From the IMG/VR virus record IMGVR_UViG_3300017964_000025, positions 1 through 44,958 of that record: DNA of 44,958 bases. One strand, 5' to 3'. The first letter of the stretch is position 1. Every line of letters begins with the position of its first letter. A program made the translations under genes and the position numbers. The notes beneath the pieces were generated by a model that saw only the letters and a program-made list of their open reading frames with translations, was not told the DNA's origin and did no database searches. This document shows, piece by piece, positions 11,609 to 40,564 of this stretch. This DNA comes from a virus.

Positions 11609-12233
11609 AATGAAAGGAAACGCTACCTGCGTCTGAGGTCATTACAGACTCGATCCGAGAGATCACGGTCATCATCTGATCTAGACGGTATTCAAGATCG
11701 GTTTCCTGATCGGACAATGAGAACACAAAGCCATTGTATTCCTTGGACTGAGCCAAACCAGTTATCAGCGCATGAAGATGAGTTCTATAGCACTCGTTTA
11801 AAGCGCCCTTCCCTGGCTCTGGGACAACAGGAATACCGGGAGGCACAATGACCAAAGCAGTGAAATTCTCATTCAACAGCTCATAACACCGCTGCATATA
11901 GTCGCTTAATGCCAAATGCTCGTCTTCACAAGAAGGAGTAGCCTCGGCAAGCGTATATGCCATGTAATCCACTGGCGATCTATCCGTCACAAAGGCGCAG
12001 GACTTAGACCAAGCAGAAGAGGCGTGATCCAGAATCTTATTTTGAATTACCAATCGATCTTTCATACCAAAAGACTTAGAAGGATCATAACCTGCATCCA
12101 TCATAATCTCTGAGGTATTCGTCTTAAGGAATGGCATAAAGCCATCCCCAAGAGAGTCAGAAAGATGATCAGATAGTTTCTGGGCTAAAGTTGTTTTTCC
12201 AACTCTGTGCGCCCCTACAAGTGCTATCTTCAT
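11607..12233 (-). CDS. P-loop nucleoside/nucleotide kinase-like protein
   Basis: A 208-residue protein with Walker A GAHRVGKTT at residues 7-15 and DRSPVDYMAY near residue 84, the layout of AAA_28/NadR-type and deoxynucleoside or thymidylate kinases (DR[SF] motif binding the nucleoside). It lies directly downstream of the DHFR-dUTPase gene (TAATG overlap) within the nucleotide module, so phosphorylation of a deoxynucleoside or dNMP is the likely reaction. The substrate cannot be read from the sequence; nicotinamide riboside kinase activity is an alternative. Confidence 0.7.
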   Translation of the reverse strand: MKIALVGAHRVGKTTLAQKLSDHLSDSLGDGFMPFLKTNTSEIMMDAGYDPSKSFGMKDRLVIQNKILDHASSAWSKSCAFVTDRSPVDYMAYTLAEATPSCEDEHLALSDYMQRCYELLNENFTALVIVPPGIPVVPEPGKGALNECYRTHLHALITGLAQSKEYNGFVFSLSDQETDLEYRLDQMMTVISRIESVMTSDAGSVSFH

Positions 12234-13408
12234 TAGTTAATTCCTGAGTGTCCAAATCCACCTTCACCACGATCACTCTCAACATCGAAGCCATCAACAA
12301 TTTTCAGTTCAGCCTGAACCACTGGCACAAATACGATTTGAGAAACGCGATCGCCCACATTCACTTCGAAATCTTCATCACTGCGATTCCATAGACTGAT
12401 CATCAATTCACCCTGATAATCGGAGTCAATTAAGCCAACAAGATTGCCAAGAACGATTCCATGTTTTGCCCCTAATCCAGATCGAGGCAGTAATGTAGCT
12501 GTATAGCCTGGATCTTTAATGTGCATAGCTAATCCAGTCTTAACCATTCGGCATTCACCCGCTTTCAGAACAAAGGCTTCGGTGGATCGCAAATCCATAC
12601 CCGCAGAGCCGGCCGTTTTGTATTCAGGCAACGGAATTTCACTTCCAATACGATCATCAAGAATCTTAACGCCAACACTAAGCCCCAAAGATTCTTCCAC
12701 ATCATTCTTAGGTTGAATGTCATCCAACATCTTTTCGACGCCAATTTTCAAACACTTATCAAAGACTTTTTGATGAGGAACATTCATGGTCGTAGCAAGA
12801 AAATTGATTTGCTCGCCTAAAGCTCGTTTCTCATCTGCTTCTTTCATGTGATCTTCGCTTAGAGCGCCCTCTATCTTTGGCTTAAGGATGTCCACCCAAG
12901 CTTCAGGATCGTCTTCGGATGCTTTAGCAAGCACATGAGCCATTTGAGTAACATCAAAGAACTGAGGTATGAAGCTAGGAGTATGAACATCTCCTTCAGC
13001 CTCTAGATTGATGATGCTGACCACAACCTTATCCAACAGATAAACACCGCGATAAGCAGCATCCAAGAACAGATCGTAAATATGCTTTCCGCCAATAATC
13101 CAGATAGCCTCATCTTCGGAGAACATGCCCGGAGTCTCTGATGCAAAACCCTCCGTGATTGACTCAAACGTAAAAAATTCAAAACCCTCGACAGCTTCAA
13201 ACTCACGCTCATCAACCAGAACAATATTTCTTCGATTTGGAAGTGGCTTACGACCTAAAGAGTCCATCGTATTCCATCCCATAATTACAGTCCCGCCTTC
13301 GGTTTGAGACTTAAACCAAGCCAGATCTGATTTACACTTCCAAGGCAGCTTCCCTTTGTTTCCGATTACTCCGTTGCGAGACGTTGCCATTATCATTGAT
13401 ACGTTCAT
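12233..13408 (-). CDS. Dihydrofolate reductase-dUTPase fusion
   Basis: A 391-residue two-domain protein. Residues 3-160 are dihydrofolate reductase: [24 protein letters not shown] with the catalytic Asp at 28, VIMGWNT and WIIGGKHIY. Residues 240-391 are trimeric-type dUTPase with all five motifs: [10 protein letters not shown] (266-275), [10 protein letters not shown] (308-317), GLIDSDYQG (325-333), GDRVSQ (352-357) and [10 protein letters not shown] (380-389). A charged helical linker joins them. DHFR regenerates the tetrahydrofolate oxidised by ThyA; dUTPase makes dUMP for ThyA and removes dUTP. The ATG at 13408 starts the DHFR fold; the frame extends to 13453. It overlaps the upstream membrane protein gene by 77 nt. 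Confidence 0.93.
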
Positions 13409-13673
13409 GTTTATTACTTTTCCCTTTACCGTTAATTTGAGCCACAAGCTCAACAGATTGCAGCCTGTTAAATAAATTGTTTAAAAGCACCGCAAACCCG
13501 GTAAACACCAAGATCCCGAAAATTGCATGTGCGTCTGTTACCCCGTTAAAACCTTGAATGACTGCTGCCAGTGAATTGCATAAACTCAAAAAGCAGCATC
13601 CCATTAGGAGTCTGTTAACTCCCCCTCTAACCTTGCGTATCTCTGATAAAACAAAATTCATTTCCTTCACCAT
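13332..13673 (-). CDS. Small membrane protein
   Basis: A 113-residue protein with two hydrophobic segments (about residues 20-40 and 48-66) and a basic, hydrophilic C-terminal tail. The tail is encoded in the 77 nt shared with the DHFR start. No good ribosome binding site precedes the first ATG, which lies only three bases from a palindromic promoter-like element. Function unknown. Confidence 0.65.
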
Positions 13674-36690: not shown

Positions 36691-37893
36691 CTATTTACCT
36701 TTTAATCCACGAACCATATCCATCACGGTCGCAAACACATCGTCTAGACGACTTTGTTCGTCAGGTCGAAATGCGATCATGGAAGGGTTCATTCCAAAAA
36801 CTATTGAACGGTCTTTCTTCTCGTCATAAATGACTTGGCCACATAGCTGATCCCAAGAGCCTTTGGCGTCAGGCCACACATGACGAATTGCAGCTCCACC
36901 CAAACAGACAATCACTGCTGGATTTAAAAGCTCAATCTCTTTGTCTAACGTGGGCGCTTGATCATTGATTTGATCGTTGGTCAGGGTCTTCTGCTCTTTA
37001 GGGCGCTTATACTTGATTAGCCCTGTCCAGTAGCCATCGTTCTTGTCTAAGCCACTACAAGCCATTGCTTGCTCAACTGGATCAGCAGTAATGCCCTCCA
37101 TAAAGCGGCCGGCCTCTTCTTCCGACCAAGTGGCAGAGTCCGTAACAACCATGAACTTCGCGTTTGCCCCAATCGCAGGTTTAACAAAGAACTCGGTATC
37201 AAACTCATCGATCTTTGAATCCCTGGCATTCAACAATTCAGTCAAAAGCTCATCTTTGGTGTCAGCGTCCAATGTCAAAGCTCGCTCTGCCTTCACAACC
37301 TCATCAATCAACGCTCCCAGAGCTTCGATCTGAGCTTTTAATCGAGATTCATCCAAAGGCTCTGGCACTCCCTTCTGAATGGAGTAGAACGCGCCTATGG
37401 AATCCAGACGTTCAATGACTCGCTTGTTCACACAACGGCGATTCACGTTATCAATCAACTCTTCAACGCTTTTGAATCGTCCGCCACATAAGCTCTTAGC
37501 GTCTTTGATGCTCTGTAGCCCTTTCTCAGAGAGCCCCTGAATCTTTTCTAAAGGCGTAAGTAGAACCAATTCACCGTCATGTTCTTTGATCTTGAATTTG
37601 GTAAAGTCCGAGTCATTAATGTCCGGTGGAAATACTTTGACTCCGTTTAGCTTCGCGTCTTTCACAAGCGGAAGGATCTTCTCATCGGTATCCGCAACAG
37701 AGAGCGCGGCAGCGTAGAACTGAACTGGATAATTAGCTTTCACATACGCAGCTAAATAACTAATTACCGTGTAGCTATAAGCGTGAGAAGAGTTGAATGA
37801 GTAGGCAGCAAAACCTTCAATATCATTCCAGAAAGATTCTGCTGCTTCGCTGGCCATTCCGTCTTCAAGGCGTTTTAAATTTTTAATCTTCAT
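36691..37893 (-). CDS. DNA polymerase III alpha, C-terminal piece fused to UDG-like domain
   Basis: A 400-residue protein. Residues 13-120 match the finger region of bacterial DnaE (FAAYSFNSSHAYSYTVISYLAAYVKANYP, then VFPPDIN), and about 115-170 form the following helix-hairpin-helix part. The beta-binding and OB regions of full-length DnaE are missing. Instead residues 246-400 look like a family-4/5 uracil-DNA glycosylase fold: YWTGLIKYKRP, ELLNPAVIVCLGGAA, FGMNPSMIAFRP. The expected GExPGxxE and HPS motifs are changed (VTDSATWSEEE; NPS), so glycosylase activity is doubtful and a DNA- or uracil-sensing role is possible. The start codon lies in a palindromic element and lacks a ribosome binding site. 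Confidence 0.85.
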   Translation of the reverse strand: MKIKNLKRLEDGMASEAAESFWNDIEGFAAYSFNSSHAYSYTVISYLAAYVKANYPVQFYAAALSVADTDEKILPLVKDAKLNGVKVFPPDINDSDFTKFKIKEHDGELVLLTPLEKIQGLSEKGLQSIKDAKSLCGGRFKSVEELIDNVNRRCVNKRVIERLDSIGAFYSIQKGVPEPLDESRLKAQIEALGALIDEVVKAERALTLDADTKDELLTELLNARDSKIDEFDTEFFVKPAIGANAKFMVVTDSATWSEEEAGRFMEGITADPVEQAMACSGLDKNDGYWTGLIKYKRPKEQKTLTNDQINDQAPTLDKEIELLNPAVIVCLGGAAIRHVWPDAKGSWDQLCGQVIYDEKKDRSIVFGMNPSMIAFRPDEQSRLDDVFATVMDMVRGLKGK

Positions 37894-37906
37894 AAGTCAT
37901 TACTTA
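37893..37906 (-). promoter_or_regulatory. Palindromic promoter element, copy 12
   Basis: TAAGT (37893-37897), CATT, ACTTA (37902-37906), followed by further TACTT units. It overlaps the first base of the polymerase C-terminal gene, so that half may have its own promoter separate from the N-terminal half. Confidence 0.45.
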
Positions 37907-37949
37907 CTTACTTTTAAATTTAAATTAATATCGCTCAATCACAGCGGTT

Positions 37950-38255
37950 TTACAACTGCTGGTGATCATCCCTTTCAAGATATTTAGTCAAAGCTTCCAC
38001 CAATTCAGGGCTAGGCTGCTTGTTTTCTACAACGGTTCTAGCCATCTCTTGCAGTGTAAATTGCAAGGCTGAAGAGTAACTACAGCGACCCTCAGAATTA
38101 TTTGCCTGGAAGTTAAGGAAATCTTGCATCAGATCTCTAAGAGGCTCATCCAACTTATAAGGTCTTGGCTTGATGCCCTTCTCAGCTTGCAGCTTTAAAG
38201 ATTCCTGCTTCTTCTGAGAAAAGTATTCAGAACCGCGCTCTTGTGTATTGGACAT
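37950..38255 (-). CDS. Hypothetical protein between the two polymerase pieces
   Basis: A 101-residue charged, mostly helical protein. It starts as TAATG with the stop of the polymerase N-terminal piece and ends 57 nt before the C-terminal piece. No HNH, GIY-YIG, LAGLIDADG or Vsr motif is visible, so it is not an obvious homing endonuclease, although its position is where one might have inserted. Function unknown. Confidence 0.7.
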   Translation of the reverse strand: MSNTQERGSEYFSQKKQESLKLQAEKGIKPRPYKLDEPLRDLMQDFLNFQANNSEGRCSYSSALQFTLQEMARTVVENKQPSPELVEALTKYLERDDHQQL

Positions 38256-40564
38256 TATAAACCCCCCTCAATTGTGTATCCGTTTTCGTAAGCCTGAAGG
38301 ATTGTAACCTGATCCTCCACTTCTTCAACTGACACTTTGGTTAGAGCATGAACTTCTTTAACTTGACCATCCTCAAGTTCAATTTGCACATAGCCTGTTG
38401 TTGCGCCATCCATGAATTGCTTCTTCATGGAGGCCATCAAGTCAGCATCCTTCTTGCCTACCGCTTTACGAAGAACGTCGGCTTCTGCCATCGTAAAGCC
38501 ACACATGTCACGGGCAATCTGCATCAACTGTTCTTGATAGATAAGAACACCATCCGTAGATTTAAGGGCGTCATTCGTCCTTGGGTGCGGATACGTTGGC
38601 ATCTCGATTCCCTGGCGAATTTCGATGTATTTATCTGCCAATCCAGCATCTAATGGGCCAGGTCTATTCAGTGCTGTCACCGCAACCGCATCATCAAATG
38701 AGATAGCAGAACCACAACTAAGATCTCGCAATAGCTTTCGTGCTCCACCCTTCTCAAACTGGAAGATTCCAACAGTGTCACCTCTCCCCATTAGCTTCAA
38801 CGTTTCTTTGTTGTCTAATGGAATGGCTTCATAGTCGATCACCTCAGAAGTAGTTTCTTCAATAAGATCTTGAGCAATGTCCAAGGTATCAAGCGTTGCT
38901 AGACCAAGAATATCGAGCTTAATTAAGCCCCACTCTTCTACCGATCGCTTGTCCCAGTTAACCGTTGTGTCTTTTCGAGTTTCAACAACCGCTCTGTTTA
39001 CGATGGGTTCGCCCGCAACAACGATACCTGCTGCGTGTTGTCCTAACGCTCGATTCTGACCTTGAAGCGCTACTGCCTGTTCAAACACATCTTCGTTATC
39101 TTTAGCGAATCGAGAAAGCTCCGGCACTTCTTTTACGGCCTCCTCAAGTCGTGTGTCAGCCGGAATCAACTTCGCACAGCTCAGTTCATGAGGTAACAAT
39201 CCAAATACTCGCCCTACGTCTCTCAATGCTCCTGACGCTGCAATGGTTGAATAGTTTGATATGCCCGCTACATTCTCACGGCCAAAATGCTCAACTAAGT
39301 GATCGATCACCATCTGTCGCTTGGAGGACTGAAAATCCAAATCAATATCGGGGTAATCAAGTCGATCTGGATTTAAGAATCGCTCGAAAATTAGATTGAA
39401 CCGTAGAGGATCGACATCAGTAATACCCAACACATAAGAAAGTAATGATCCAGCCGCAGATCCTCGACCGGGACCGACTTTTACATCGTTCTCTTTGCAC
39501 CAATTGACAACGTAACTAACCAATAAAAAATAAGAGCTAAAACCCATCTGTCGAATGACCTGAAGCTCATAAGCCAAGCGATCTTTATAGGGAGTAAGAT
39601 CTTTTGGCTTGAATCCATAGACCTCAGAACCCAATCGTTTTTTAAACCCTTCAACAGCCAGTTTTGCTAACGTTGCGAATTCGTTTTCACTGAATGTTGG
39701 CAAGCACATTTCCTGCTTTTCCCAGTGATAGTCACAATCTGAGAATGCGCCCAGTGAAGTGTCATACACGAATATCGAAGCCCCATCGCTAATCGTGCAC
39801 TTGCTGGCGATAGCCTCAAGTTCTTCAGGCGATACCGGATGAAGATCTCGGAAATGCGACACCTGAAAGAAGCGACTCATCACGTTGCCCTTAGTGATAA
39901 CACCACGCATGATGTCTTTAGGAAGATCCTGCCCTTCCAAGTAATGAATAGGACGAGTAACGATTCCGGTAATTCCTTTCTCAAACATCGCTGAGACTGC
40001 TTTAGAGTTCATTGTATGATTGAGTAATCCTTCAACGGCATGAAGCTCTACGAGGATGTCAGACGTATTGCCGGACTCAATTAACTTATCCAGAAGCTCA
40101 TCATGTTTGTTCGCATAAAACAAACCGTCAAATCCACCGGTCATCAACTTCAGGTTACCCTTTGAGAAGACTTCACAAACCTGGTCGTAAGATGCGCGTC
40201 CAGTGAAGTGAAACTGATGTTCTTGGTGTGCTTGCGTTAAAAGCCAAAACAAGTCCTTCATGCCTTCATTATTCTTGGCTATCAGTCGAATCCAGGCATG
40301 ATCATTATCAATTGCCTTCTCATCCGAATTTCTGGATGGCTCTTTGTATTCGGCATCTGATACGCAATGTATGGTTACGCCAATATGAAGCTTGAAATCC
40401 TTGTCTTTTGGAAGAGCTTTCGTGGCGTTAACTAATCCATTTACCGAGTTAGTGTCTGCCAAAATCGCTTCTTTGTATCCAAGTTCAATCAAGCTATTGA
40501 TTGCTTCTTTTGGGGAAATAATGCTTTCGCCCATTGAGAAGTTTGATTTAATTACAGGGATCAT
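38255..40564 (-). CDS. DNA polymerase III alpha (DnaE), N-terminal piece with catalytic palm
   Basis: A 769-residue C-family polymerase fragment. The N-terminal PHP-like region (1-250) lacks the metal-binding HxH and DH residues. GPGRGSAAGSLLSYVLG (about 365-381) and PDIDLDF with D406 and D408, plus D551 in LIKLDILGL, give the complete catalytic triad. Similarity to DnaE stops after MKKQFMDGA (721), exactly before the GFNKSH-type finger found in the separate gene at 36691. The last 48 residues (YVQIELEDGQ, ILQAYENGY) are an extra tail. The two products presumably assemble into the replicative polymerase. The start overlaps the upstream stop as ATGA. Confidence 0.92.
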   Translation of the reverse strand: MIPVIKSNFSMGESIISPKEAINSLIELGYKEAILADTNSVNGLVNATKALPKDKDFKLHIGVTIHCVSDAEYKEPSRNSDEKAIDNDHAWIRLIAKNNEGMKDLFWLLTQAHQEHQFHFTGRASYDQVCEVFSKGNLKLMTGGFDGLFYANKHDELLDKLIESGNTSDILVELHAVEGLLNHTMNSKAVSAMFEKGITGIVTRPIHYLEGQDLPKDIMRGVITKGNVMSRFFQVSHFRDLHPVSPEELEAIASKCTISDGASIFVYDTSLGAFSDCDYHWEKQEMCLPTFSENEFATLAKLAVEGFKKRLGSEVYGFKPKDLTPYKDRLAYELQVIRQMGFSSYFLLVSYVVNWCKENDVKVGPGRGSAAGSLLSYVLGITDVDPLRFNLIFERFLNPDRLDYPDIDLDFQSSKRQMVIDHLVEHFGRENVAGISNYSTIAASGALRDVGRVFGLLPHELSCAKLIPADTRLEEAVKEVPELSRFAKDNEDVFEQAVALQGQNRALGQHAAGIVVAGEPIVNRAVVETRKDTTVNWDKRSVEEWGLIKLDILGLATLDTLDIAQDLIEETTSEVIDYEAIPLDNKETLKLMGRGDTVGIFQFEKGGARKLLRDLSCGSAISFDDAVAVTALNRPGPLDAGLADKYIEIRQGIEMPTYPHPRTNDALKSTDGVLIYQEQLMQIARDMCGFTMAEADVLRKAVGKKDADLMASMKKQFMDGATTGYVQIELEDGQVKEVHALTKVSVEEVEDQVTILQAYENGYTIEGGL

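What the first reader, a model, noticed from the sequence alone, without database searches (positions are those of the whole stretch)
36691..40564. Replicative DnaE polymerase encoded in two pieces
The N-terminal gene has the full catalytic triad (D406, D408, D551) and loses similarity after MKKQFMDGA. The second gene resumes at the next DnaE segment (FNSSHAYSY, VKANYP). Between them are a 48-residue extra tail, a 101-codon gene and a palindromic promoter-like element. No frameshift joins them, so the enzyme must assemble from two chains, as known for the split NrdA of phage Aeh1.
Basis: partly seen in the sequence, partly recalled or inferred. Interest (0 to 1): 0.7.

Follow-up and report, generated by a model that had tools for sequence, protein, structure and literature searches.

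The report
Split phage polymerase with intein remnant
A phage DNA-copying enzyme is encoded as two separate proteins, probably because a mobile cutting-enzyme gene once broke its gene, and the broken ends carry a small leftover of a protein-splicing element that can no longer splice but may still hold the two halves together.

Summary
Confirmed and extended. dnaE-N (40564-38255, 769 aa) and dnaE-C (37893-36691, 400 aa) are two ORFs in different frames, 361 nt apart; four other metagenome contigs carry the stretch unchanged. Relatives show every state at this one point: no insert, an in-frame insert (SSU5 group), or a break with an HNH homing endonuclease (HEG); 350 plasmids carry one of the two HEG types counted. 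In the window the HEG slot holds an orphan ORF. Complete relatives with split dnaE have no other family A, B or C polymerase. New: the 48-residue tail resembles the second half of DnaE-type split IntN (PDB profile search, hhalign against shuffles, Foldseek), ending next to the natural intein split, and the second chain starts MKI like IntC. Splicing residues are absent. Best reading: a two-chain DnaE, probably held non-covalently by a splicing-dead split-intein core left by HEG invasion. Chain assembly and clasp function are inferred. On a quick tree the insert state changed at least six times. The promoter claim is not supported. Some Acinetobacter copies also carry an intact-looking split intein elsewhere in dnaE.

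The parts
38255..40564 (-). dnaE-N: PHP, palm and first part of fingers of a Pol III alpha (DnaE); catalytic D406, D408, D551
38258..38401 (-). 48-residue C-terminal tail of dnaE-N (residues 722-769), resembling the second half of a DnaE-type split IntN; splicing residues absent
38262..38269 (-). Shine-Dalgarno GAGGGGGG inside the last codons of dnaE-N, 6 nt before the ATG of orf101 (TAATG overlap)
   Evidence: sequence
37950..38255 (-). orf101, an orphan ORF in the slot that holds an HNH homing endonuclease in relatives
   Evidence: no homologue in Pfam, PHROGs, NCBIfam, phages or plasmids
37894..37949 (-). 56-nt intercistronic gap with an AT-rich palindrome (37913-37926); no promoter above chance
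36691..37893 (-). dnaE-C: rest of fingers, HhH domain and a C-terminal UDG-fold domain
37858..37893 (-). N-terminal head of dnaE-C (MKIKNLKRLEDG), equivalent to the last strand of the fused insert in relatives and resembling the IntC start
36709..37167 (-). family-4 / UdgX-like uracil-DNA glycosylase fold fused to DnaE (approximate bounds, residues 243-395)

Best explanation
The phage makes its replicative polymerase as two chains. An element carrying a homing endonuclease entered dnaE in the loop between the finger domain and the helix before the FNKSH motif, and broke the gene. The element is, or derives from, a split intein that lost both splicing ends: what remains is the second half of IntN on the first chain and the first strand of IntC on the second. 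These two pieces most likely still pair and hold the chains together non-covalently, so the enzyme works without splicing. In the window's phage the endonuclease gene has been lost or replaced by orf101, while the split stays. Shown: the split, the insertion site, the HEG in relatives and its decay there, purifying selection on split copies, absence of another polymerase in complete relatives, and sequence and fold similarity of the tail to inteins. Inferred: that the chains assemble, that tail and head pair in trans, that the tail descends from an intein rather than resembling one by convergence, and that the HEGs home.
For: Same-site states in relatives: no insert; fused insert (SSU5, PhiR41_1, Cyrano, pJN2-26, L047, L049); split by NUMOD4-HNH or NUMOD3-HNH (L015-L020, L028, L029, L114, L123, L153, L173, L184); split without an endonuclease ORF (L051) or with a truncated one (L037, L141, L142). 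Tail profile against PDB: the best 13 of 177,635 sequences are DnaE inteins, best E 1.9e-5. hhalign against inteins: score 35-41 versus at most 20 in 300 shuffles and 17 in 86 other DnaE segments; the divergent subgroup L029/L123/L153/L114 scores on its own (prob. 95%; 88.5% against phage inteins only). Foldseek of the template-free insert model: ranks 1-8 of 350,542 chains are DnaE inteins, best 1.8 A over 41 columns. The head-equivalent segment is a strand in both models. Tails are acidic (-2 to -8) and six of eight heads tested are basic, as described for the capture step of split inteins (PMC11766414). One polymerase per complete relative. dN/dS 0.034 and 0.035.
Against: No expression, purification or two-chain model. 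The window has no endonuclease, so its HEG history rests on relatives, and it sits on a long branch. The tail-intein match is short (about 40 residues), the Foldseek E-values are weak (0.04 at best) and the insert model is modest (pLDDT 71.5, pTM 0.50). In one profile search designed repeat proteins also reached E 3e-4. The tail profile did not recover L037's own IntN at E<10. No complete intein was found at this site in the loci examined. One Acinetobacter locus (L152) appears to have a frameshift in the tail, so the tail may be dispensable, or that draft sequence wrong. Two of eight heads tested are not basic.
Confidence: 0.6

Rival explanations
1. Ordinary gene-in-pieces: HEG insertion split dnaE and the two halves reassociate through their native polymerase interface; the tail is an inert remnant or a chance resemblance to inteins.
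For: Split gp43 of Aeromonas phage 25 co-purifies and is active, and split NrdA of Aeh1 works (PMC2988022); the Aeh1 NrdA-A tail does not match this profile. L152 appears to keep the split with a frameshifted tail.
Against: Tail and head recur in many lineages with a conserved pattern, and the insert is kept in frame in SSU5-type single-chain enzymes. Intein similarity is well above shuffles, other DnaE segments and the reversed profile.
Confidence: 0.25
2. The pieces are joined covalently by protein trans-splicing (a split intein).
For: Similarity of the tail to IntN and of the head to the IntC start; a split intein with C1 and HN|C does exist elsewhere in dnaE of some Acinetobacter copies.
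Against: In the window there is no block A nucleophile, no T..H of block B (absent in all 13 tails), and no block F/G with terminal Asn in the head (sequence). Single-chain relatives keep the insert as part of an open reading frame without splice residues.
Confidence: 0.02
3. A self-splicing intron or recoding (frameshift, bypass) joins the pieces at RNA level.
For: HEGs often sit in group I introns.
Against: No Rfam intron in the window or eight relatives. Both ORFs are closed, in different frames, with a further ORF between, and the tail is conserved as protein.
Confidence: 0.02
4. dnaE is decaying and the phage relies on the host replicase.
For: The gene is broken, and only part of the window's genome is held.
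Against: Catalytic residues intact, strong purifying selection on split copies of relatives, no replacement polymerase in complete relatives, the same split in several hundred plasmids.
Confidence: 0.06
5. Assembly or sequencing artefact.
For: The window is a metagenomic contig.
Against: Identical in four other contigs, and relatives in complete plasmids share the split.
Confidence: 0.01

Closest known systems
Split gp43 (PolB) of Aeromonas phages 25 and 44RR (Petrov et al. 2010, as reviewed in PMC2988022)
   Same: Phage replicative polymerase made of two chains at a HEG-associated break; one relative (44RR) without a HEG in the gap
   Different: Family B polymerase; whether its ends resemble inteins was not tested here
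Split NrdA of phage Aeh1 (mobE insertion)
   Same: HNH HEG between two gene pieces; functional two-chain enzyme (PMC2988022)
   Different: Different protein; the NrdA-A tail does not match this profile and its NrdA-B head is acidic, not MKI-like
Cyanobacterial split DnaE inteins (Npu, Ssp)
   Same: DnaE in two chains near FNKSH; our tail matches the second half of their IntN and our head resembles the IntC start
   Different: Those splice; their site lies about 22 residues downstream (from general knowledge); here all splicing residues are missing
Fractured genes with split intein and HEG (Dassa et al. 2009, from general knowledge)
   Same: IntN-like end, free-standing endonuclease, IntC-like start, as also seen at the second dnaE site of L037
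   Different: Splicing ends lost; endonucleases are NUMOD3/NUMOD4-HNH
nrdA of Listeria phages A511 and P100 (PMC3653736)
   Same: Fragmented gene with reported traces of an intein in the gap
   Different: The trace is in non-coding DNA, not kept as protein on both chains

Membership tests
Bacterial DnaE / Pol III alpha | Three catalytic aspartates and PHP, palm and finger domains | tested here: met
Bacterial DnaE / Pol III alpha | Polymerase activity of the two-chain protein | not testable with these tools
   needs biochemistry
HEG-split (genes-in-pieces) phage gene | Two ORFs collinear with one gene in relatives | tested here: met
HEG-split (genes-in-pieces) phage gene | Homing endonuclease gene in the gap | tested here: not met
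   In the window orf101 has no recognised family; met in relatives L015-L020, L028, L029, L114, L123, L153, L173, L184
HEG-split (genes-in-pieces) phage gene | Halves reassemble into an active enzyme | not testable with these tools
   needs co-expression
Intein (splicing) | N-terminal nucleophile (block A) and conserved T..H of block B | tested here: not met
   no T..H in any of 13 tails; no block A
Intein (splicing) | C-terminal Asn followed by Cys/Ser/Thr | tested here: not met
   head is MKIKNLKRLEDG running directly into DnaE sequence
Intein-derived fold (half Hint) | Sequence-profile and fold similarity to the second half of IntN | tested here: met
Group I/II intron | Covariance-model match | tested here: not met

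The most novel reading that the evidence does not exclude
A split intein gave up splicing and became a mobile, non-covalent clasp: endonuclease genes invade an essential polymerase gene flanked by two short coding pieces that dock with each other, so the break is tolerated. Different endonucleases then exchange in the gap and are lost, leaving a stable two-chain enzyme, or a one-chain enzyme with a fossil domain.
Probability: 0.4. Interest if true: 0.8.

Novelty: new variant of a known kind. Interest (0 to 1): 0.68.

Why it matters
Two-chain replicative polymerases without splicing are known for PolB; this extends the idea to the bacterial C family, in a widespread group of phage-plasmids (hundreds of Klebsiella, Enterobacter and Acinetobacter plasmids). 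One site is seen in every state: empty, occupied, decayed, and fused. It suggests that an intein can outlive its splicing by keeping only the part that lets its halves find each other. That makes a question directly testable: how do proteins broken by endonuclease insertion stay functional?

Tried and rejected
Trans-splicing intein in the window (splicing residues absent). Intron (Rfam). Misassembly (four more contigs). Promoter in the gap (no more than chance). Homologues of orf101: none in phages, plasmids, Pfam, PHROGs or NCBIfam. Tail domain elsewhere: tblastn in phages found only dnaE-bearing phages of this family, and the annotated plasmid rows listed were dnaE; one copy per genome in 12 records; none convincing in the 50 kb of Aeh1 read. 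Tail profile against all ORFs of the held loci did not recover L037's IntN. Genome-collection scan gave only four loci. Literature searches found no report of split dnaE or of a UDG-DnaE fusion in these phages, but only open-licence papers were searched. Complex prediction of the two chains was not possible with the tool given.

Full report
OBSERVATION. Reverse-strand ORFs 40564..38255 (769 aa) and 37893..36691 (400 aa) encode the two parts of a DnaE polymerase. D406, D408 and D551 are present and the tail after MKKQFMDGA is 48 aa. The frames differ, both are closed, and orf101 (38255..37950) lies between. Four other IMG/VR contigs carry the same 3,874 nt unchanged. The promoter-like element is not above chance; the palindrome itself is real but AT-rich.

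WHAT RELATIVES SHOW. The neighbourhood is conserved: CobT/CobS-like pair, dnaE, gp32-like SSB, 5'-3' exonuclease and RecA. Nickie, V1VFA-S, BUCTxx99 and Acinetobacter AR_0102 have one dnaE without an insert. SSU5, PhiR41_1, Cyrano, pJN2-26, L047 and L049 have one dnaE with an in-frame insert homologous to the window's tail plus head. Klebsiella, Enterobacter, Salmonella, E. coli, Aeromonas and Acinetobacter elements and several metagenomic phages have dnaE broken inside that insert by an HNH endonuclease with NUMOD4 or NUMOD3 motifs. L051 has only a 70-nt gap, and L037, L141 and L142 have a shortened gap, with the endonuclease cut to 63 aa in L037. Of 834 plasmids with a tail match, 243 carry the Klebsiella-type endonuclease; 107 Acinetobacter plasmids carry the Acinetobacter type, 12 of them covering less than 80% of it.

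TREE AND EXCHANGE. On a quick tree of 57 dnaE-C sequences the no-insert state needs 7 changes, 6 forced by well-supported branches, with sister pairs split/empty (L029/L125, L028/L034, L123/L131, L016/L021). The tree does not tell gains from losses, and the window is on a long branch. L173 and L184 are 77% identical in dnaE-C but have different endonuclease types; L029, L123 and L153 share an endonuclease (47-50%) in dnaE-C that is 42-55% identical.

THE TAIL IS INTEIN-LIKE. A profile of tails and inserts hits DnaE inteins as the best 13 PDB sequences; tail plus head gives the same top family, with some designed repeat proteins close behind. hhalign against an intein profile scores 35-41; 300 column shuffles reach 18-20, other DnaE segments 17, the reversed profile 10. 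Two tail subgroups score separately (probability 62.75% and 95.4%). A profile built without the window recognises its tail (E 1.1e-5 at Z = 1e6). AlphaFold of a fused relative (L049) has mean pLDDT 88 and folds the insert as strand-strand-helix-strand; the insert alone (pLDDT 71.5) gives Foldseek ranks 1-8 all DnaE inteins, E 0.04-0.14. The matched part is the second half of IntN, ending next to the natural split of split inteins. All 13 heads compared start with M, then K-I with at most one residue between. Block A, T..H and the C-terminal Asn are missing, so splicing is not expected.

FUNCTION. Complete relatives with the split carry one DnaE and no family A or B polymerase. Klebsiella versus E. 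coli split copies give dN/dS 0.034 (N) and 0.035 (C); synonymous changes are near saturation there, so the exact ratio is rough. So the split enzyme is probably the working replicase. How the chains hold together is inferred: split-intein halves associate by electrostatic capture (PMC11766414), tails here are acidic and most heads basic, and the head-equivalent segment is a strand in both models; in the isolated insert model it can only pair within the insert.

LIMITS. No experiment, no two-chain model, the window's own genome incomplete, no complete intein found at this site, and one locus (L152) with an apparent tail frameshift. orf101 has no known relative. Its placement (ATG overlapping the dnaE-N stop, strong SD) resembles the tight coupling of the endonuclease gene in L015 and L114, but that it replaced an endonuclease is an inference.

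Noticed in passing
L037 1128-4771 (also L141, L142, L145, L156): The same Acinetobacter dnaE carries a second break with an intact-looking split intein (GPGRGS|C ... HN|CGGSL; TIGR01445 above cut-off) and, in L037, a 343-aa ORF between the halves, so the polymerase is encoded in three pieces, one junction apparently spliced and one not.
   Followed up: partly
window 36709-37167; relatives in alignment A1: dnaE-C ends in a family-4/UdgX-like uracil-DNA glycosylase fold (Pfam 8e-9, NCBIfam 8e-11; Foldseek about 1e-7 in relative L049).
   Followed up: partly
L152 5100-5170: Apparent frameshift inside the tail of a split Acinetobacter dnaE-N with a truncated endonuclease: natural tail loss or a draft sequencing error.
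   Followed up: partly
L173 and L184: Closely related split dnaE (dnaE-C 77% identical) with different endonuclease types in the gap: endonuclease exchange at a fixed break.
   Followed up: partly
window 12233-13453: One 406-aa ORF holds both dihydrofolate reductase and dUTPase domains.
   Followed up: no
L187 41489-44628 (phage Aeh1): NrdA-A ends in a lysine-rich tail and NrdA-B starts with an acidic head, possibly a different charge-paired clasp.
   Followed up: no
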